Assembly (NCBI GenBank): GCA_026785685.1
Contig: JAJAZN010000150.1
Location: forward strand, 1-35,499
Source: Thermoleophilia bacterium
GTDB taxonomy: Bacteria > Actinomycetota > Thermoleophilia > Gaiellales > Gaiellaceae
DNA: 35,499 bases
Direction of reading: 5' to 3'
A model generated the notes under the pieces. It did no database searches. It saw nothing but the letters and a program-made list of their open reading frames with translations, and was not told the origin of the DNA. How positions within the stretch are numbered: position 1 is the stretch's first letter; each line of letters starts with the position of its first letter. The position numbers and the translations under genes were made by a program. Positions 5,315 to 19,291 of the stretch are shown here, one piece after another.

Positions 5315-6622
5315 GTGGCCTCTGTCGACGTACCGGTAGCGCTCCTCGGGTATGGCACCGTCGGTGCCGCGGTGCACCGCCTGCTCGAGGAGTCGGCCGA
5401 CGAGATCGAGCGCGCCACCGGCCACCGCCTCAGGGTGACTCGTGCGCTCGTGAAGGACACGAGCAAGGACCGAGGGTTCTCGCCGGCGCCGGGCGTTCTC
5501 ACCGTCGACATCGGCGACATCCTCGGCGACCCCTCGATCCAGGTCGTCGCCGAGGTGATGGGCGGCGTCGACCCGGCGGGTGGGTACGTGCTCGAGCTGC
5601 TGCGGTCGGGACGCCCCGTCGTGACCGCGAACAAGCAACTTGTCGCACGACGCGGCACCGAGCTGTTCGAAGCGGCGGCCGCAGGTGGCGTGCAGCTGCG
5701 ATTCGAGGCGTCCGTTTGCGCTGCGATCCCCGTAATCAAGGTGTTGCGTGAGTCCCTCATCGTCACGAATGTGCATCGGGTTCTCGGGATCGTCAACGGG
5801 ACGACGAACTTCATCCTCTCCGCGATGGAGGAGGGCCGCTCGTACGGCGATGCCCTAGCCGAGGCCCAACGGCTCGGCTTCGCCGAGGCCGATCCGACCG
5901 AGGACGTCGGCGGGCTCGACGCCGCTGCAAAGACGGCGATCCTCGCCACCGTCGCGTTCGGCTCCCGGGTCCCACTCGATTGGGTCGAGGTCGAAGGCAT
6001 CGAGGGGGTCACGCTCGACCACGTCGCTGCCGCGCGAGCGCTCGACATGCACGTCAAACTGATCGGGCGGGCATCGCTCGTCGGCGACCGCGTCGACGTG
6101 CGGGTCGGGCCGGCGTTCGTGGACGGCCACCATCCACTTGCCGCGGTGGAGGGAGCCTTCAACGCGGTGATGTTGCACGGCGACGCGATCCGCGAGATCA
6201 CGCTCGAAGGGCCTGGAGCCGGCGGGATCGAGACCGCATCCGCCGTCGTTGCCGACATGGTCTCCGTCGTCGGGACGACCGGGTCAGGATTCCTCCAGAA
6301 CGACCCGGTCTGGCGCACGCTCGAGCGGCTGCCTCCAGGCGAGCTCGCCTCGCCGTTCTACCTCCGGCTCGAGGTCGAGGATCGAGCAGGCGTCCTCGCG
6401 CGCATCGCGCAGGAGCTCGCATCCGAAAGCGTCTCCGTCGCGCAGCTCGTGCAGCAGCAGGTCGAAGGGCGCGCCGTCCTCCACGTCGTGACGCACGAGG
6501 CTGCATCGGGGCGGGTCGATGCCGCTCTCGCCGCGATCCGGGCTCTGCCCGAGGCCCGCGGCGAGGCAACCGCGATGCCCGTCATCTCGGGCCGAGGCGT
6601 CGCCGAGCTGGGCTGGGCGTGA
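5315..6622 (+). CDS. hom: Homoserine dehydrogenase (C-terminal ACT domain)
   Basis: VALLGYGTVGAAVHRLL, GIVNGTTNFILSAME, AEADPTEDVGGLDAAAK; C-terminal ACT-like FYLRLEVEDRAGVLARIA. Confidence 0.95.
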   Translation: MASVDVPVALLGYGTVGAAVHRLLEESADEIERATGHRLRVTRALVKDTSKDRGFSPAPGVLTVDIGDILGDPSIQVVAEVMGGVDPAGGYVLELLRSGRPVVTANKQLVARRGTELFEAAAAGGVQLRFEASVCAAIPVIKVLRESLIVTNVHRVLGIVNGTTNFILSAMEEGRSYGDALAEAQRLGFAEADPTEDVGGLDAAAKTAILATVAFGSRVPLDWVEVEGIEGVTLDHVAAARALDMHVKLIGRASLVGDRVDVRVGPAFVDGHHPLAAVEGAFNAVMLHGDAIREITLEGPGAGGIETASAVVADMVSVVGTTGSGFLQNDPVWRTLERLPPGELASPFYLRLEVEDRAGVLARIAQELASESVSVAQLVQQQVEGRAVLHVVTHEAASGRVDAALAAIRALPEARGEATAMPVISGRGVAELGWA

Positions 6623-7587
6623 CCATCGCGCTGATCGATCGCTTCCGCGCTGCCCTTCCTGTGAGCGAGGCAACGCCCGTCATCTCGCTCGGCGAAGGGT
6701 CTACGCCGCTCCTCAGCGCGCCCCGTCTCTCGGAGCGCCTGGGCGTGGAGATCTGGCTCAAGTGGGAGGCGTCGAACCCGACGGGCTCGTACAAGGATCG
6801 GGGCATGACCGTGGCCGTCTCGAAGGCGGCCGAGGACGGTGCCGAGGCGGTGATCTGTGCCTCGACCGGCAACACGGCTGCGTCGGCCGCAGCCTATGCC
6901 GCTCGCGCGGGGATCCCCGCCGTCGTGCTCACGCCCGAGGGCGCGGTCGCGGGCGCCAAGGTGTCGCAGACGCGGATGCTCGGCGCGAAGGTGCTCGAAA
7001 TCCGGGGCGATTTCGACGAGGCCCTTGCCGCAGCACAGGAGCTCTCCCGCCGGGGAACACACGTCCTTGTCAACTCCGTCAACCCCTATCGTCGCGAGGG
7101 CCAGAAGACCGCCGTCTACGAGATCGTCGAGGAGCTCGGCACGGCGCCCGACGCGTTCGTGATTCCGTACGGAGGTGGGGGCAACACGTCGGCCTACGCG
7201 ATCGCGATTGGAGAGCTCGGGATCTCCACGCCGATCTACTCGGTCGAGGCCGAGCACCGGCCGACGACGCTTGCCTCTGCGATCCGGATCGGTGACCCGG
7301 TGCACGCCGCAAGCGTGCAGGCTGCGGGAGCGACCATCGTCACCGTCTCGGACGACGAGATCGTGGCCGCATGGCTCGAGCTCGCGACAACCGAGGGGCT
7401 GTTCTGCGAGCCGTCCTCGGCAGCCGGCCTCGCCGCGATTCGACGCGGCGCAGTCCTGGGCGAGCGGGTCGTCGTCACGATTACCGGCCACGGCCTCAAG
7501 GACACGGAAGCGGCCGACCGCTATGCGCCACCGCGCGCCCAGGTCGACGCAGATCCCGACGCGATCGCCGCCGCAGCCCGCGCATGA
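6619..7587 (+). CDS. thrC: Threonine synthase (canonical, short form)
   Basis: LGEGSTPLL, NPTGSYKDRGM, CASTGNTAASAAAYAARAG; GTGA overlap with hom. Confidence 0.92.
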   Translation: MTIALIDRFRAALPVSEATPVISLGEGSTPLLSAPRLSERLGVEIWLKWEASNPTGSYKDRGMTVAVSKAAEDGAEAVICASTGNTAASAAAYAARAGIPAVVLTPEGAVAGAKVSQTRMLGAKVLEIRGDFDEALAAAQELSRRGTHVLVNSVNPYRREGQKTAVYEIVEELGTAPDAFVIPYGGGGNTSAYAIAIGELGISTPIYSVEAEHRPTTLASAIRIGDPVHAASVQAAGATIVTVSDDEIVAAWLELATTEGLFCEPSSAAGLAAIRRGAVLGERVVVTITGHGLKDTEAADRYAPPRAQVDADPDAIAAAARA

Positions 7588-8399
7588 TCGTCCGAGCCCC
7601 CGCCACGTCCGCAAACATCGGCGCCGGCTTCGACACAGCCGCGGTCGCGCTCGATCTTTGGGACGAGCTCGAGGTGACGAGCGGATCAGGCGTGATCATC
7701 GAAGGAGAGGGATCGTCCGAGCTCTCGCTCGATGAGAACAACCTCGCCGTGCGCGCGTACTCGCTCCTCGCCGATCCGACCGGAAAGCAGTTCCGTTTCC
7801 GGAATGCGATCCCTCTCGAGCGCGGACTCGGCTCGTCGGCAGCTGCGATCGCACTCGGCCTCGTCGCGGCAGCGCCGGATGCGAGCCCGGAGGAGTTGCT
7901 CGCGGCTGGCCTGAGGCTCGAACCACACGCCGACAATCTCGGCGCCGCACTCCTCGGCGGCCTGACCCTCGCCTGGGACGGAAAGATCGCGCGCATTGCG
8001 GAGACGCTCCCGCTCGAAGCGATTGCCATCATCCCGAGCTCGAGAACGTCGACCAAGATGTCCCGCGGAGCTCTGCCTGCGACGGTCCCGCATGCGGAGG
8101 CGGCCGCGAGCGCAGGACGTGCTGCGCTCCTCGGAGCAGGAGCGGCGAGTGGTGACGCAACGCTGTTCGCGGCAGCGCTCGACGACTGGCTCCACGAACC
8201 GTACCGCCCGTCGGAGGTACTGGACGTCGTCCGTCGTACCCCGCCGCCCGGATGCCTCGGAGCGACACTCTCCGGATCAGGCCCCACGGTGATCGCGTGG
8301 GTCTCGGATGCGGAAGGGTGCGTCGCGTCGATCCAGGATCTCTTCCCCGACCACCGAGTGCTCGAACTGGCTGTGGCCCCGCGAGGCGCTCTCCGGTGA
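7584..8399 (+). CDS. thrB: Homoserine kinase
   Basis: MIVRAPATSANIGAGFDTAAVALDLWDE; GHMP motif PLERGLGSSAAAIALGL; ATGA overlap. Confidence 0.93.
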   Translation: MIVRAPATSANIGAGFDTAAVALDLWDELEVTSGSGVIIEGEGSSELSLDENNLAVRAYSLLADPTGKQFRFRNAIPLERGLGSSAAAIALGLVAAAPDASPEELLAAGLRLEPHADNLGAALLGGLTLAWDGKIARIAETLPLEAIAIIPSSRTSTKMSRGALPATVPHAEAAASAGRAALLGAGAASGDATLFAAALDDWLHEPYRPSEVLDVVRRTPPPGCLGATLSGSGPTVIAWVSDAEGCVASIQDLFPDHRVLELAVAPRGALR

Positions 8400-9103
8400 G
8401 CTACCGGCTGATCGACGTGCGGCCCCGGGCCGCGTTTCTGGAAGGCCATATCCCCGGCGTCGCGCATCTCGATCCCGAGCTGGACCTGTCGGCGATCGGC
8501 CCCGACCCCGCAGTCGGGGGACGGCACCCCCTACCGGGTGTCGAACAGCTCGAGGAGGCCTTCAGGCGCGTCGGTGTCGGACGATTTGACTACGTCCTCG
8601 CCATCGATGACGGCTCGGGATGGGCTGCCCGGTGCTGGTGGCTGCTCCGCCACCTCGGCCACGACTTGGCTGGAACGTTCGATCTCCGGGGCTACATCGG
8701 CCCCCTGATGACAACGCCGTTCGCACCCGTGCGAGGCGAATTCGAGGCACGTCCTCGAGACGATGACACGATCACTGCCGAGGAGATCCTCGCGCGCCTC
8801 GACGACCCCTCGCTCACACTTCTCGACGCCCGCAGCGAGCCGCGCTGGCTCGGTGACGAGGAGCCACTCGACCCCGTGCCCGGCCGGATTCCCGGTGCGC
8901 GCAACGCGTACTTCGAGGATTCACTGCCTGACGACCTGGCGGAAGCGCCGGAGCTCGTCGCCTACTGCGGATCGGGCGTGACGGCGTGCGTCGTCGCCCT
9001 AAAGCTCGTTCTTGCGGGCCGCGAGGATGTCCGTCTCTATCCTGGCTCCTTCAGCGAGTGGTGCCGCCGTGAGAACTACCCCATCGAGAAAGGACAGCCG
9101 TGA
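8396..9103 (+). CDS. sseA: Two-domain rhodanese (thiosulfate/3-mercaptopyruvate sulfurtransferase type)
   Basis: YRLIDVRPRAAFLEGHIPGVAHLDPE; active-site loop YCGSGVTACV; GTGA overlap with thrB. Confidence 0.88.
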   Translation: MSYRLIDVRPRAAFLEGHIPGVAHLDPELDLSAIGPDPAVGGRHPLPGVEQLEEAFRRVGVGRFDYVLAIDDGSGWAARCWWLLRHLGHDLAGTFDLRGYIGPLMTTPFAPVRGEFEARPRDDDTITAEEILARLDDPSLTLLDARSEPRWLGDEEPLDPVPGRIPGARNAYFEDSLPDDLAEAPELVAYCGSGVTACVVALKLVLAGREDVRLYPGSFSEWCRRENYPIEKGQP

Positions 9104-13163: not shown

Positions 13164-14780
13164 GTGACCGAGCAGGCGACGCGTGTGGTGATCATCGGGG
13201 GCGGCGTCGCCGCCCTTGAGGCAACGCTCGCGCTCCAGGCGCTCGCAGGCCCGCGCGTCGGCATCGAGGTCGTCGCGCCCGAACCGCACTTCTACTACCG
13301 CCCGCTCTCCGTCGCAGCGCCGTTCGCTCCCGGCGAGCTACGACGCTACGACCTCGGCACGCTCCTCGCCCGCGGGCGCGCGCTGCTCACCCTCGGGACG
13401 GTGGCAGGCGTCGACCCTGATCGTTGTCAGGCGCTCACAAAGGACGGGGGAGTGCTCCCGTACGACGCGCTCCTCGTCGCATGCGGGGCAATGTCCGTGC
13501 CTGTGATCGGGGGCGCGCTGACATTCCGCGGCCCGGCCGATATCGACCGCTTCTCGACTCTGCTCCGTGAGGTGGAGTCCGGGGCGGTCAACAGGATCGC
13601 GTTCTCGATCCCGGGTGGCGCCATCTGGAGTCTCCCTCTGTACGAACTCGCGCTCCTCACCGCCTCGTGGCTCGAGAGTCAGGATCGACGCGATGTTTCG
13701 GTCGTGCTCACGACCCCCGAGAGCGAGCCGCTCGAGTTGTTCGGGGCCGAAGCGAGCGCTGCCACGACGCGGCTGCTCGCGGAACGCGGGATCGACGTCT
13801 GGCCACGAGCGCGCGCCCTTGGTTTCCACGAGGGTGAGCTCGCGCTCGCGTCAGGCGAGACGCTGCGCGTCGACCGGGTCGTCGCGATGCCACGACTCAC
13901 CGGGCCGCGTCTCGCAGGGTTGCCGCAGACCCGTAACGGCTTCATCCCGATCGACCGCCATTGCAAGGTCGAAGGCCTCCCGGGCGTCTATGCGGCCGGG
14001 GACATCACGACCTTCCCCGTCAAGCAGGGAGGCATCGCCGCGCAGCAAGCGGACGTCGCCGCCCAGGCGATTGCGCGTGCCGCGGGTGCCGACCTCGAGC
14101 CGCAGCCGTTTCGTCCCGTCCTGCGAGGGATGCTGCTGACCGGATCCGCGCCGCAGTTCATGCGCCACGACCTCTCCCACCCCGAAGGGACACCGACCGT
14201 GAGTCTCAACGAGCTCTGGTGGCCGCCGGCGAAGATCGCCGGACACTACCTCGGCCCACTGATCCTCTCGCTCGACGAGACCGGAGCCGGTGAGGCCGAG
14301 GCCGAAGAACGGCCGGGGGACGTGGTCGTCCTCGTCGAGCTCGATCCCGACGCAACCGCTCCCGCCGACCACTGGGACGATCAGGACGGGCCTGCCCCCG
14401 AAGGAGAGGCCGTCGGCGGCCTGCCAACGGCGCCCCTCCTTCTCGTCGCGCCGGAGGACTCACTCGGTGAAGTCGCGACGCGGATGCGCGAGCTCGACAT
14501 CGGATCGGCGGTCGTCGCGGAGTATGGGAAGACGATCGGAATCATCACCGCCCGCGACCTGCTCGGAGCCTTCGGAAGCCGTGTTCATCCGAGCGAGGCG
14601 CGCGTCCGCTCGTGGATGACGGCGCATCCGATCACCATTCGCGCGGAACAGAGCCGTGCGGTAGCTGCGTCGCTCATGAAGGAGCATGGCATCCATCACC
14701 TGCCGATTCTCGACGAGAGCGGCCACCCGGTCGCCGTCATCGGTCTCCGAGACGTCGCCCCGCCGACCGATCAGCGGTAG
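13164..14780 (+). CDS. NDH-2/SQR-like FAD-dependent oxidoreductase fused to a C-terminal CBS-domain pair
   Basis: N-terminal VVIIGGGVAALEATLAL Rossmann, VYAAGDITTFPVKQGGIAAQQADVAA; C-terminal LGEVATRMRELDIGSAVVAEYGKTIGIITARDLL...MTAHPITIRAEQSRAVAASLMKEHGIHHLPILDESGHPVAVIGLRDV. Confidence 0.85.
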   Translation: MTEQATRVVIIGGGVAALEATLALQALAGPRVGIEVVAPEPHFYYRPLSVAAPFAPGELRRYDLGTLLARGRALLTLGTVAGVDPDRCQALTKDGGVLPYDALLVACGAMSVPVIGGALTFRGPADIDRFSTLLREVESGAVNRIAFSIPGGAIWSLPLYELALLTASWLESQDRRDVSVVLTTPESEPLELFGAEASAATTRLLAERGIDVWPRARALGFHEGELALASGETLRVDRVVAMPRLTGPRLAGLPQTRNGFIPIDRHCKVEGLPGVYAAGDITTFPVKQGGIAAQQADVAAQAIARAAGADLEPQPFRPVLRGMLLTGSAPQFMRHDLSHPEGTPTVSLNELWWPPAKIAGHYLGPLILSLDETGAGEAEAEERPGDVVVLVELDPDATAPADHWDDQDGPAPEGEAVGGLPTAPLLLVAPEDSLGEVATRMRELDIGSAVVAEYGKTIGIITARDLLGAFGSRVHPSEARVRSWMTAHPITIRAEQSRAVAASLMKEHGIHHLPILDESGHPVAVIGLRDVAPPTDQR

Positions 14781-14824
14781 CGTCGCCTCGTCCGCTAGAG
14801 TTTCCCCTGGCGCGGGACCCGTCC

Positions 14825-14924
14825 CGCTCCGCATCAAGAGAGGCTGAGGGACCGGCCCTGTGACGCCTCGGCAACCTGCCCCACACATCGGGTGACGGTG
14901 CCAATCCCGGACGGATGTCGAGCG
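14825..14924 (+). ncRNA. SAM-I-clan (S-box) riboswitch
   Basis: Core ATCAAGAGAGGCTGAGGGACCGGCCCTGTGACGCCTCGGCAACC...GGTGCCAATCC; P1 CGCTCcGCATC/GATGTcGAGCG and P2 GAGGC/GCCTC pair by eye. Confidence 0.88.
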
Positions 14925-14945
14925 ACGACCAGGAGGTTCTCTACC

Positions 14946-16163
14946 ATGCCCGCTGTTTCCCTTTGCTGCCGCATCTGCGCGACCGAGCATCCGCTCGAAG
15001 CGACAGGTACGTGCTCACGCTGTTTCGGCCCACTCGATCCGACCTACGACTGGGACGCGCTCCGCGCCCGGGTCAGCCGCGCCTCGATCGAGGCTGGGCC
15101 CCAGTCGATCTGGCGCTACGCGGACCTGCTCCCGGTTGCTGCTCCGAAGGAGGCACGGCTCGCCCCGGGGATGACACCGCTCGTGCCGGCGGAGCGGCTT
15201 GCCAAGGAGCTCGGCATCGGTGAGCTGTGGCTCAAGCTCGACACCGCGAACCCGACGCACTCGTTCAAGGATCGCGTGGTCGCCGTGGCCGCCCGAAAGG
15301 CGCAGGAGCTCGGGCTCGACACGCTCTCGTGCTCGTCTACCGGCAATCTCGCCGGGGCAGTCGCCGCACGCGCTGCGGCAGAGGGCATGGAGGCGGCGGT
15401 CTTCGTCCCGAGCGACCTCGAGCCGGAGAAGCTCGCTGCGGCCGCCGTCTACGGGCCGCGCATCTATGCCGTTGCCGGTACCTACGACCACTGCTCGCGC
15501 CTCTCGGTCGAGCTGTCGTTCGAGCTGCCGTGGGGGTTTGTCAACGTCAACCTCCGCTCGTACTACGCAGAGGGATCGAAGACTCTCGCCTACGAGATCG
15601 CGGAACAGCTCGGATGGGAGACGCCCGACGCCGTCGCGATCCCAATCGCTTCGGGGGCTCTCTTCCACAAGGTGGGCCAGGGGTTCGGGGAGCTCATCGC
15701 GCTCGGCCTCGTCGACGGCCGCGCTCCGGCTCTCTTCGGAGGTCAGGCGGCCGGCTGCGAACCCGTTGCGACGGCGTTTCGGGAGCGCTCGCGCGTGGTG
15801 CCGGTGCGCCCGTCGAGCATCGCTCGCTCACTCGCAATCGGAAACCCCGCAGACGGCGACTTCGCGGTCACGACCGCCCGCGCTACCGGCGGCGCGATCC
15901 ACACGGTCGCGGAGGACGAGATCGGCTCCAACATGGCCCACCTCGCCGCGACGACGGGAGTCTTTGGCGAGACCGCGACCGGCGTCACGCTCGGCGCGCT
16001 GAAGGCCGCTGTCGCCGCCGGCCAGATCGGGCCGCGCGCACGCGTCGTCCTTCTCGTCACGGGCGACGGGTTGAAGACGCCCGGGCCGGTCTCCGACACC
16101 TACGATCCCATCATGATCGAAGCCGACGCAGACGCGTTTCTCGATAAAGTGTTGATCGCCTAG
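14946..16163 (+). CDS. Threonine-synthase-like PLP enzyme with N-terminal Zn ribbon; candidate MetM-type homocysteine synthase
   Basis: [31 protein letters not shown] ribbon; [32 protein letters not shown]; second ThrC homologue in window and under SAM riboswitch. Confidence 0.85.
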
Positions 16164-17578
16164 TGACAGGACGGAGCCTGTTCGAGAAGGTCTGGGACCT
16201 GCACGTCGTTCGCGACGAGCCGGGTGAGCCGACGCTGCTTTACATCGACCTGCACCTCGTCCACGAGGTCACGTCCCCACAGGCGTTCGAGGGCTTGCGC
16301 CTCGCGGGACGAGATGTCCGCCGGCCTGACCTCACGGTGGCAACGATGGATCACAACGTCCCCACCCTGCCTGGCCCGGTGACGGACCCGATGGCGAAGG
16401 CACAGCTCGACGCGCTGCGGGCGAACTGTGAGGCGTTCGGCGTCGAGCTCCACGGCACCGGATCGGGGAGTGAGGGGATCGTCCACGTCATCGGCCCTGA
16501 ACTCGGTCTCACGCAACCCGGGAAGACGATCGTGTGCGGCGACAGCCACACCTCGACGCACGGTGCGTTCGGCGCGCTCGCATTCGGCATCGGCACGTCC
16601 GAGGTCGAGCACGTCCTCGCCACGCAAACGCTCAACCAACAGCGACCGAAGACGATGCTGCTCGAGTTCCAGGGTGATCTTCCACCGGGCCTGACCGCGA
16701 AGGACATGATCCTCGGGGCGATCGGACAGGTGGGGGTCGACGGCGGCGTCGGCTATGTCGTCGAGTACGCGGGGGAGGCGATCCAGGCTCTGTCGATGGA
16801 GCAGCGGATGACGATCTGCAACATGACGATCGAGTGGGGTGCCCGGGCAGGGCTCATTGCTCCGGACGAGACGACGTTCGCGTACCTCGAGGGTCGTCCG
16901 CACGCGCCGCAGGCCGATGATTGGTCGCGGGCCGTCACCGAGTGGAGGCAACTCGCCTCCGACCCGGATGCGACGTACGACACGCACGTTGTCGTGGACG
17001 TGACCGGACTCGCCCCGCAGGTGACGTGGGGAACGAATCCCGGCATGGTCGTCCCGGTGACGAGCGCCGTGCCCGACCCGAATTCGTTCTCGGGCGGCGA
17101 CGACCGGGACGCTGCGGAGCGGGCCATTACGTACATGGGCCTTCGCGCGGGCCAGCCGATCGAGGAGATCGCGGTCGACCGCGTCTTCATCGGCTCGTGC
17201 ACCAACTCGCGCATCGAGGACCTCCGCGCAGCGGCAGAGATCGTTCGTGGCAAGACAATCGACCCCCGCGTGACCGCGCTCGTCGTCCCTGGATCTGCTC
17301 AGGTGCGGCGGCAGGCGGAGAGCGAAGGGCTCGATCAGATCTTTCTCGACGCGGGCTTCGAGTGGCGCCTCGCCGGCTGCTCGATGTGCCTCGGGATGAA
17401 CCCCGACGTGCTGGCGCCGGGTGAGCGCTGCGCGTCGACGTCGAACCGAAACTTCGAGGGGCGGCAAGGGCGCGGCGGCCGCACGCACCTCGTCAGCCCA
17501 CAGATGGCAGCAGCAGCCGCGCTCCACGGGCATTTCGTCGATGTGAGAGCCCTGACGGCCGAGCCGGTGGCGTCGTGA
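16163..17578 (+). CDS. leuC: 3-isopropylmalate dehydratase large subunit
   Basis: [55 protein letters not shown]. Confidence 0.96.
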
Positions 17579-18168
17579 AGGCGTTCTCCGAGGTCAGCGC
17601 CCGCGTCGCGGTGCTCGACCGGCCCGACGTCGACACCGACCAGATCATCCCGAAGCAGTTCCTGAAGCGGATCGAGCGCACAGGCTACGGGCAGTACGCG
17701 TTCTTCGACTGGCGCTTCGACGAGGACGGCAACGAGCGACCGGGCTTCGAGCTCAACCAGCCCCAGTTCGCAGGCGCTCGCATCCTGCTGGCCGGACGCA
17801 ACTTCGGCTGCGGCTCCTCGCGCGAACACGCAGCGTGGGCGCTTCAGGATGCAGGGTTCGACGTCGTCATTGCACCCTCGTTCGGCGACATCTTCCGGTC
17901 GAACGCGGCGAAGGTCGGGATGGTGATCGTCCAGCTGCCCGAGGATCAGGTGAAGGAGTTGATGGAGTCGGTCGACCTCGATCGGGGCTCCGATCTGACC
18001 GTCGACCTCGAGGCACTCACCGTGACGACGCTTGAGGGCAAGGTGTTTCCCTTCGCCTTCGATGCCTCGACGCAGTACCGGCTGCTGAACGGCCTGGACG
18101 ACATCGACCTGACGCTCACCCACGAGACCGAGATTACCGCCTACGAGACCTCGCGGGCGACTCGATGA
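17575..18168 (+). CDS. leuD: 3-isopropylmalate dehydratase small subunit
   Basis: [43 protein letters not shown] overlap with leuC. Confidence 0.95.
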
Positions 18169-18211
18169 GCGCGTCAGCCCTCCACCTTGCACCGCAGCAC
18201 ACGACCAACGC

Positions 18212-18230
18212 TTGTGACGATTTGTCACAA
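18212..18230. promoter_or_regulatory. Operator-like palindrome 1 upstream of leuB
   Basis: TTGTGAC-GATTT-GTCACAA, perfect 7-bp arms. Confidence 0.6.
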
Positions 18231-18264
18231 GACTCGCACAGCCAGCGGCCTCGCAGGTCAATGT

Positions 18265-18283
18265 TTGTGACGATGTGTCACAA
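18265..18283. promoter_or_regulatory. Operator-like palindrome 2 upstream of leuB
   Basis: TTGTGAC-GATGT-GTCACAA, perfect 7-bp arms, one base different from copy 1. Confidence 0.6.
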
Positions 18284-18298
18284 GGATCGGGTGCCGCG

Positions 18299-19291
18299 AT
18301 GAGCCACGTGGCGGTGTTGCCAGGCGATGGAATCGGGCCGGAGGTCACGGCGCAGGCTGTGCGCGTGCTCGACGCCTTCGGGATCGGCTACTCCGAGCAC
18401 GCATTCGGCGGCAACGCGATCCTGGCGCAGGGAACGCCACTCCCCGATGAGACGCTCGCGGCCTGCCGCGCGGCCGATGCAGTTCTCCTCGCCGCCGTCG
18501 GCCTCCCCGAGCTCGAGGGAAAGCCGGTGCGCCCGGAGCAGGGCCTCCTCGGGCTGCGCAAGGAGCTCGGCGTGTACGCGAACCTCCGTCCCGCACGCGC
18601 TCCCGGGATCGACATCATGATCGTCCGGGAGCTCGTCGGTGGTCTCTACTTCGGCGAAAAGGGGATCCGCGAGGACGGAACCTGGTTCGACACCTGCGAG
18701 TACTCTCGCCCCGAGGTAGAGCGCATTGCGCGCCGCGGATTCGAGATCGCAGAGGCGCGCGGGGGGCGTCTAACCTCGGTCGACAAGGTCAATGTCATGC
18801 ACACCTCGCGCCTGTGGCGCGATGTCGTGACACAGATGGGAGCGAGCTTTTATCCCGCCGTCGCGCTCGATCACGCGCTCGTCGACTCGTTCGCAATGAC
18901 GATCGTTCAGGCGCCGGAGACGATCGACACGGTCGTGACCGAGAACACGTTTGGCGACATCCTCTCCGACATCGCTGCGGCGGTGACGGGCGGCCTCGGT
19001 CTCGCAGCGTCTGCGTCGCTCGGTGACGACGGGCCGGGACTCTTCGAGCCGGTTCACGGATCCGCGCCGCAGATCGCCGTGCTCGGGATCGCGAACCCGG
19101 CTGCAATGCTGCGGTCGGTGGCGCTGCTCCTCGACCACGGCCTCGGGCGCCCCGCCGAGGCAGCAGCACTCGAGAGCGCCGTCGATACCGCTCTCCAGAG
19201 CGCCTCGACGCCCGACCTCGGTGGAACGAGCACGACGAGCGATGTCGGAGACGCGGTGTTGCGCGCGCTCGATTCTGCCCGTACCCTGTGA
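18299..19291 (+). CDS. leuB: 3-isopropylmalate dehydrogenase
   Basis: MSHVAVLPGDGIGPEVTAQAVRVLDAFG, KVNVMHTSRLWRDVV, ENTFGDILSDIAAAVTGGLGLAASAS, EPVHGSAPQIA. Confidence 0.95.
   Translation: MSHVAVLPGDGIGPEVTAQAVRVLDAFGIGYSEHAFGGNAILAQGTPLPDETLAACRAADAVLLAAVGLPELEGKPVRPEQGLLGLRKELGVYANLRPARAPGIDIMIVRELVGGLYFGEKGIREDGTWFDTCEYSRPEVERIARRGFEIAEARGGRLTSVDKVNVMHTSRLWRDVVTQMGASFYPAVALDHALVDSFAMTIVQAPETIDTVVTENTFGDILSDIAAAVTGGLGLAASASLGDDGPGLFEPVHGSAPQIAVLGIANPAAMLRSVALLLDHGLGRPAEAAALESAVDTALQSASTPDLGGTSTTSDVGDAVLRALDSARTL

What the first reader, a model, noticed from the sequence alone, without database searches (positions are those of the whole stretch)
14946..16163. SAM-riboswitch-controlled ThrC paralog: candidate MetM-type homocysteine synthase
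The window has a canonical short thrC in the hom-thrB operon (6619-7587) and a second, longer ThrC homologue with an N-terminal Cys4 Zn ribbon. Repression by SAM makes sense for a methionine enzyme, not for threonine synthesis. A MetM/MetO route, in which a ThrC homologue converts O-phosphohomoserine to homocysteine using a thiocarboxylated sulfur-carrier protein, has been described in Streptomyces (recalled, not looked up). No metO-like small ORF ending in GG was seen here, so the sulfur donor would be encoded elsewhere or differ (the rhodanese at 8396?).
Basis: partly seen in the sequence, partly recalled or inferred. Interest (0 to 1): 0.75.

Follow-up and report, generated by a model that had tools for sequence, protein, structure and literature searches.

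The report
MetM-type homocysteine synthase without MetO
A gene usually labelled threonine synthase is, by ancestry, active-site signature and its S-adenosylmethionine-sensing RNA switch, a member of the recently described MetM family thought to make homocysteine for methionine; its bacterial order has lost the family's usual sulfur-carrier partner, so the enzyme probably borrows another carrier or uses free sulfide.

Summary
A SAM-I riboswitch (14828-14921, 69 bits, E 2.9e-14) ends 24 nt before a 405-aa ThrC-family gene (14946-16163) with a Cys4 ribbon, and a separate short thrC lies in hom-thrC-thrB. The MetM interpretation holds. In a tree the protein sits in a clade (100/99) that excludes five solved threonine synthases and the window's own ThrC. 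It lacks the ThrC signatures NSVNPxRxEGQKT and GNAGN, and 111 of 119 positions conserved in its MetO-linked relatives are kept. In about 145 of 164 clade loci examined a MetO-like carrier (ending PAVAGG) follows the gene. The twist: its whole order keeps riboswitch and enzyme (19 of 19 loci) but has no MetO-type carrier in 15 genomes searched, one of them a single contig. The nearest carrier is CysO, here fused in frame to CysM beside MoeZ and a JAMM peptidase. Relatives support a homocysteine role: ThrC2 overlaps a homocysteine methyltransferase gene in one and precedes sulfite and PAPS reductases in another. The window's genome also has riboswitch-controlled metY-metX, so the route is redundant here, but two congeners lack metX. 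Activity and the sulfur donor are inferred, not shown.

The parts
14828..14921 (+). SAM-I (S-box) riboswitch aptamer
   Evidence: RF00162 full-length match, 69 bits, E 2.9e-14; same element upstream of 19 of 19 orthologues in the order
14922..14945 (+). very short expression platform: 24 nt with Shine-Dalgarno AGGAGG at 14931-14936; translational control inferred
   Evidence: sequence; no terminator-like site in 14700-15050
14946..16163 (+). ThrC2, MetM-type homocysteine synthase candidate (405 aa, PLP fold type II)
   Evidence: MetM-like clade in the tree; signature residues; AF2 model pLDDT 92 matching threonine synthases
14967..15023 (+). codons of Cys8-Cys11-Cys23-Cys26, Cys4 ribbon
   Evidence: invariant in the 21-sequence alignment A1
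15267..15269 (+). codon of Lys108 in [11 protein letters not shown]-binding lysine by alignment with Thermus ThrC Lys61
   Evidence: alignments
5315..6622 (+). hom, homoserine dehydrogenase (supplies homoserine)
   Evidence: NCBIfam NF004976 456.7 bits
6619..7587 (+). thrC1, the threonine synthase proper (short)
   Evidence: TIGR00260 219 bits; groups with threonine synthases in the tree
7584..8399 (+). thrB, homoserine kinase (supplies O-phosphohomoserine); start inferred
   Evidence: translation and operon position; no family scan was run on it
16163..19291 (+). leuC-leuD-leuB, co-directional downstream, leuC overlapping the ThrC2 stop
   Evidence: sequence; leuC confirmed on the orthologue; directly downstream only in part of the genus

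Best explanation
ThrC2 is the vertically inherited MetM orthologue of this order of Thermoleophilia-type bacteria. When SAM is low the riboswitch lets it be made; it takes O-phosphohomoserine from hom/thrB, eliminates phosphate on PLP and adds sulfur at C-gamma to give homocysteine, which a riboswitch-controlled homocysteine S-methyltransferase turns into methionine. Shown: riboswitch, orthology to a carrier-linked clade, changed active-site signatures, precursor genes, absence of a dedicated MetO. Inferred: the reaction itself, and that sulfur comes from a CysO-type thiocarboxylate charged by MoeZ (free sulfide is about as likely).
For: Riboswitch here and at 19/19 orthologues in the order against none at the ordinary ThrC loci tested. 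The other SAM riboswitches of the genome precede metY-metX, sulfite/PAPS reductase and homocysteine S-methyltransferase. Tree: MetM-like clade 100/99, nested in carrier-linked same-class sequences. A MetO-like gene follows in about 73 of 84 phylum loci and 72 of 80 named loci. ThrC signatures replaced throughout the clade; 111 of 119 conserved columns kept. G034: ThrC2 overlaps homocysteine S-methyltransferase by 4 nt; G024: riboswitch-ThrC2-sulfite reductase-PAPS reductase. G001, G005, G010, G011, G024, G025, G035, G037, G040 and G046 have ThrC2 but no MetX and no MetA. Threonine synthase and IlvA exist separately. MoeZ, CysO::CysM and a JAMM peptidase are in the genome.
Against: No activity is shown. 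This genome also has metX and metY, so it does not need the route. Many same-family genomes have neither ThrC2 nor MetX, so lack of MetX is not proof that ThrC2 replaces it; the phylum-wide anticorrelation is weak and not corrected for ancestry (46/101/118/132, Fisher p 0.002). No MetO-type carrier is present. A cyanobacterial relative is reported to have threonine synthase and deaminase activity in vitro (PMC12172450). Genome-scale absences rest mostly on draft assemblies.
Confidence: 0.72

Rival explanations
1. ThrC2 is a second threonine synthase that happens to sit behind a SAM riboswitch, coordinating aspartate-family flux.
For: Passes the NCBIfam thrC cut-off (229 against 167.1); closest folds in the PDB are threonine synthases; a cyanobacterial relative has reported threonine synthase activity (PMC12172450).
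Against: The clade excludes all threonine synthases used and lacks the Arg160/Asn188 signatures. MetM-clade loci with a carrier pass the same HMM, so that label does not discriminate. A threonine synthase is already encoded at 6619-7587. SAM control and homocysteine-methyltransferase or sulfite-reductase neighbours do not fit threonine.
Confidence: 0.1
2. A MetM-type enzyme, but after losing MetO it uses free sulfide or another small thiol directly, as an O-phosphohomoserine sulfhydrylase (a sub-case of the best explanation, differing in the donor).
For: No MetO-type protein in 15 genomes of the order, one a single contig; sulfite reductase follows ThrC2 in G024 and lies near it in four f2 genomes.
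Against: 93% of positions conserved in carrier-linked members are unchanged; a complete CysO/MoeZ/JAMM carrier system exists.
Confidence: 0.3
3. ThrC2 makes cystathionine from O-phosphohomoserine and cysteine (a fold-type-II analogue of plant cystathionine gamma-synthase), and homocysteine follows by a lyase.
For: Would need no sulfur carrier and fits SAM control; a Cys/Met-metabolism PLP enzyme is present in 19 of 20 genomes checked.
Against: Sister lineages pair the same enzyme with a carrier; the co-occurring cystathionine beta-synthase suggests reverse transsulfuration instead.
Confidence: 0.08
4. The conventional O-acetylhomoserine route makes all methionine in this organism and ThrC2 is an idle or decaying leftover.
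For: metX-metY present and riboswitch-controlled; ThrC2 patchy in the family.
Against: Intact frame, 77-91% identity in the genus, catalytic residues and riboswitch conserved; kept where MetX is absent.
Confidence: 0.1

Closest known systems
MetM/MetO homocysteine synthase of Streptomyces albulus (Hasebe et al. 2024, doi 10.1128/aem.01247-24; paper not held, known here through PMC12172450)
   Same: Same ThrC-derived clade as SAM-riboswitch plus MetO-like loci in Streptomyces-type genomes (L097, L100-L102, L108) at 49-52% identity; SAM riboswitch in both; same active-site signatures
   Different: No MetO beside the gene and no MetO-type protein found in the genome or in 14 other genomes of its order; the route is redundant with metX-metY in this genome
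CysO/CysM/Mec/MoeZ cysteine pathway of Mycobacterium tuberculosis (PMC3227635)
   Same: Carrier chemistry proposed as the sulfur source; MoeZ-like, CysO, CysM and JAMM genes present; PDB relatives of the own CysO domain include M. tuberculosis CysO 3dwg
   Different: CysO and CysM are fused in one frame in this genome and several relatives; use of CysO by a homocysteine synthase is not known to me
Threonine synthase (ThrC; 6cgq, 1uim, 2zsj, 2d1f, 1e5x)
   Same: PLP fold type II, TM-score about 0.9 (by target length) to bacterial ThrC; same predicted substrate
   Different: Separate clade; NSVNPxRxEGQKT and GNAGN replaced by NVNxRxYYxEGSKT and IASG; N-terminal Cys4 ribbon
Microcystis ThrC with adjacent sulfur carrier (PMC12172450; close relative Microcystis novacekii L233 here)
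   Same: Same clade, MetO-like gene downstream
   Different: No SAM riboswitch; reported threonine synthase/deaminase activity in vitro

Membership tests
MetM (homocysteine synthase of the MetM/MetO route) | Belongs to the ThrC-derived clade of carrier-linked enzymes, not to ThrC | tested here: met
   Maximum-likelihood tree, 60 proteins, 100/99
MetM (homocysteine synthase of the MetM/MetO route) | Sulfur carrier MetO encoded next to metM | tested here: not met
   None at the locus or in the order's loci, though present in sister lineages
MetM (homocysteine synthase of the MetM/MetO route) | A MetO-type carrier somewhere in the genome | tested here: not met
   PF02597 search and MetO/CysO HMM comparison: only CysO, MoaD-type and a divergent 85-aa protein; draft genome 94.6% complete
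MetM (homocysteine synthase of the MetM/MetO route) | SAM riboswitch upstream, as reported for S. albulus metM | tested here: met
   also Streptomyces-type loci
MetM (homocysteine synthase of the MetM/MetO route) | Converts O-phosphohomoserine to homocysteine with a thiocarboxylated carrier | not testable with these tools
   Needs an enzyme assay
Threonine synthase | Conserved NSVNPxRxEGQKT and GNAGN motifs (Arg160, Asn188 in Thermus numbering) | tested here: not met
   alignment, numbering; the role of these residues in phosphate binding is recalled, not looked up
Threonine synthase | Above NCBIfam TIGR00260 cut-off | tested here: met
   229 against 167.1, but carrier-linked clade members pass too, so not discriminating
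SAM-I riboswitch (RF00162) | Score above the Rfam gathering threshold over the full model | tested here: met
   69 against 44.4 bits, positions 1-108

The most novel reading that the evidence does not exclude
In this order homocysteine and cysteine synthesis share one sulfur carrier: MetM lost MetO and takes thiocarboxylated CysO. In the window's organism CysO is made as a CysO-CysM fusion that must be cut after Gly-Gly (by the nearby JAMM peptidase) before it can be charged by MoeZ.
Probability: 0.33. Interest if true: 0.65.

Novelty: new variant of a known kind. Interest (0 to 1): 0.45.

Why it matters
Genes of this clade pass the standard HMM for threonine synthase, so methionine routes are probably misread in many draft genomes of actinobacteria, cyanobacteria and Chloroflexi. 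A whole order that keeps the enzyme and its SAM switch but has lost the dedicated carrier is a natural experiment on what a carrier-dependent sulfur enzyme needs, and on whether CysO can serve two amino-acid pathways.

Tried and rejected
Rhodanese 8396-9103 as direct donor: it is an MST-like two-domain rhodanese, with nothing tying it specifically to ThrC2. Standalone 85-aa ThiS protein on C142 as MetO: scores 42 bits with the MetO model against more than 130 for known MetO, groups outside MetO+CysO, and sits beside an unrelated gene. CysO as a relocated MetO: CysO of the order groups with CysO of same-class genomes that still have MetO (100/99), so MetO was lost rather than moved. Function linked to leucine because of leuCDB downstream: the tight adjacency is limited to part of the genus. 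MetX absence as proof: weakened by genomes that lack both. Folding the leader alone did not yield the aptamer fold or a clear switch; the aptamer rests on Rfam. MetO_L180 was a mis-extracted row in the carrier tree and was dropped later.

Full report
Observation. A SAM-I riboswitch aptamer lies at 14828-14921 (RF00162, 69 bits, E 2.9e-14, full length) and ends 24 nt before the ATG of a 405-aa ORF at 14946-16163, with AGGAGG at 14931-14936. No terminator-like site is seen, so translational control is the likelier mode (inference). The ORF has Cys8/Cys11/Cys23/Cys26 and a PALP domain. A short threonine synthase at 6619-7587 sits between hom and thrB.

Other SAM riboswitches of the same genome. 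Four are found in all. The other three precede metY-metX; sulfite reductase plus PAPS reductase; and a homocysteine S-methyltransferase. ThrC2 is thus a member of a methionine/sulfur regulon. I do not treat it as one, for the reasons below.

Kinship. A search of 60 related genomes and of 397 genomes of the phylum, plus 80 named loci, gave about 180 relatives; most of those outside the window's own family are 49-57% identical to it. In the tree ThrC2 falls in a clade (100/99) that excludes the solved threonine synthases of Bacillus, Thermus, Aquifex, Mycobacterium and Arabidopsis, a haloarchaeal ThrC, the short ThrC of relatives, and the window's own ThrC1. Inside the clade it follows the organisms: own genus, own family, own order (99/90), same class. 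Named relatives include Conexibacter, Frankia, Thermocatellispora, Microcystis, Dolichospermum, Chloroflexi and an Aquificaceae MAG. Genomes are anonymous; that f28/g96 is Streptomyces is my inference from genome size (6-11 Mb) and gene order. That the window belongs to Thermoleophilia rests on a named same-family contig (L161).

What defines the clade. A roughly 90-aa MetO/CysO-like sulfur carrier ending in PAVAGG lies just downstream in about 73 of 84 phylum loci and 72 of 80 named loci, often overlapping by 4 nt. These counts rest on a motif and on limited flanks; one phylum case (L147) may be an out-of-frame motif, and three of the eight named loci without it are the window's own close kin. 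The SAM riboswitch is upstream in 19 of 19 loci of the window's order, in 71 of 87 further loci and in 37 of 80 named loci, but in none of the cyanobacterial ones. None was found at the loci of ordinary ThrC (L042). This matches what PMC12172450 reports of Hasebe et al. 2024: MetM with MetO in Streptomyces albulus, a SAM riboswitch upstream of metM there but not in Microcystis, and 51.6% identity between the two proteins. The primary paper is not held.

Active site. All clade members shown replace the ThrC signature NSVNPxRxEGQKT by NVNxRxYYxEGSKT (small variations) and GNAGN by a [AG]SG-type loop. In Thermus numbering (checked) these are Asn154-Arg160 and Gly187-Asn191. That they hold the substrate phosphate in ThrC is recalled, not looked up. 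The PLP lysine (Lys108) is kept. The AF2 model (pLDDT 92) is closest to threonine synthases (6nmx, TM 0.89 by target length), as expected for a derived family. Of 119 columns at least 95% conserved in the 161 clade members outside the order, the window protein keeps 111; about ten positions differ systematically in its family.

The difference. None of the order's loci has MetO next to the gene. Searches for ThiS-family proteins in 15 genomes of the order, including one assembled as a single contig (G024), followed by scoring with MetO and CysO models, found no MetO-type protein. Same-class genomes have both MetO and a separate CysO ending PAMAGG. The order's CysO groups with those CysO (100/99; short sequences, rough supports), so MetO was lost. 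In the window's genome CysO is fused in frame to CysM, after a MoeZ-like rhodanese/adenylyltransferase; the rest of CysM and a JAMM peptidase lie on a second contig whose end overlaps (C88 and C65; the join is inferred). The fusion is also seen uninterrupted in relatives (G001, G003, G010, G034) and is absent in others (G005, G006, G024). MoeZ charging CysO is established for mycobacteria (PMC3227635).

Does it still serve methionine? In G034 ThrC2 overlaps a homocysteine S-methyltransferase gene by 4 nt. In G024 the riboswitch precedes ThrC2, then sulfite reductase (117 nt on), then PAPS reductase. Sulfite reductase-like genes lie close upstream in four f2 genomes. Ten genomes with ThrC2 lack MetX (G001, G005, G010, G011, G024, G025, G035, G037, G040, G046) and none of 20 genomes checked has MetA. 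Against this, many same-family genomes have neither ThrC2 nor MetX, and the phylum-wide anticorrelation is modest (p 0.002, not corrected for ancestry). Separate ThrC1, biosynthetic IlvA and cystathionine beta-synthase exist in the window's genome, so threonine, 2-oxobutyrate and reverse transsulfuration are covered by others.

Conclusion. MetM-type homocysteine synthase, regulated by SAM: about 0.72. Donor: CysO-type carrier about a third, sulfide about as likely; not decided. The family is known; the MetO-less order and the CysO-CysM fusion make it a variant worth a bench test.

Noticed in passing
G000 C88:3542-4070 (L240) continuing on C65 (L055); L241-L261: CysO sulfur carrier fused in frame to CysM, next to MoeZ and a JAMM peptidase; fusion present in several relatives and absent in others, so the internal Gly-Gly would have to be released by cleavage.
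   Followed up: partly
L298 (G011) and L299 (G035): A third ThrC-family paralogue, about 50% identical to ThrC2, on a long branch beside the ThrC2 family and on the same contig as ThrC2; function unknown.
   Followed up: partly
6619-7587: ThrC1 is only 322 aa, with a deletion relative to other ThrC and GGGGN in place of the GNAGN loop, on a long branch.
   Followed up: no
13164-14780: Flavin-dependent pyridine nucleotide-disulfide oxidoreductase fused to two CBS domains directly upstream of the riboswitch.
   Followed up: no
L053 (C142) 6525-7845, L295: Divergent 85-aa ThiS-like protein ending PAITGG beside a BNR/sialidase-like repeat protein; a homologue exists in G024.
   Followed up: no
G003:C1:2108632-2109842 (L041): ThrC2 of one same-genus genome is split in two frames (frameshift or assembly error) though its riboswitch is intact.
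   Followed up: no
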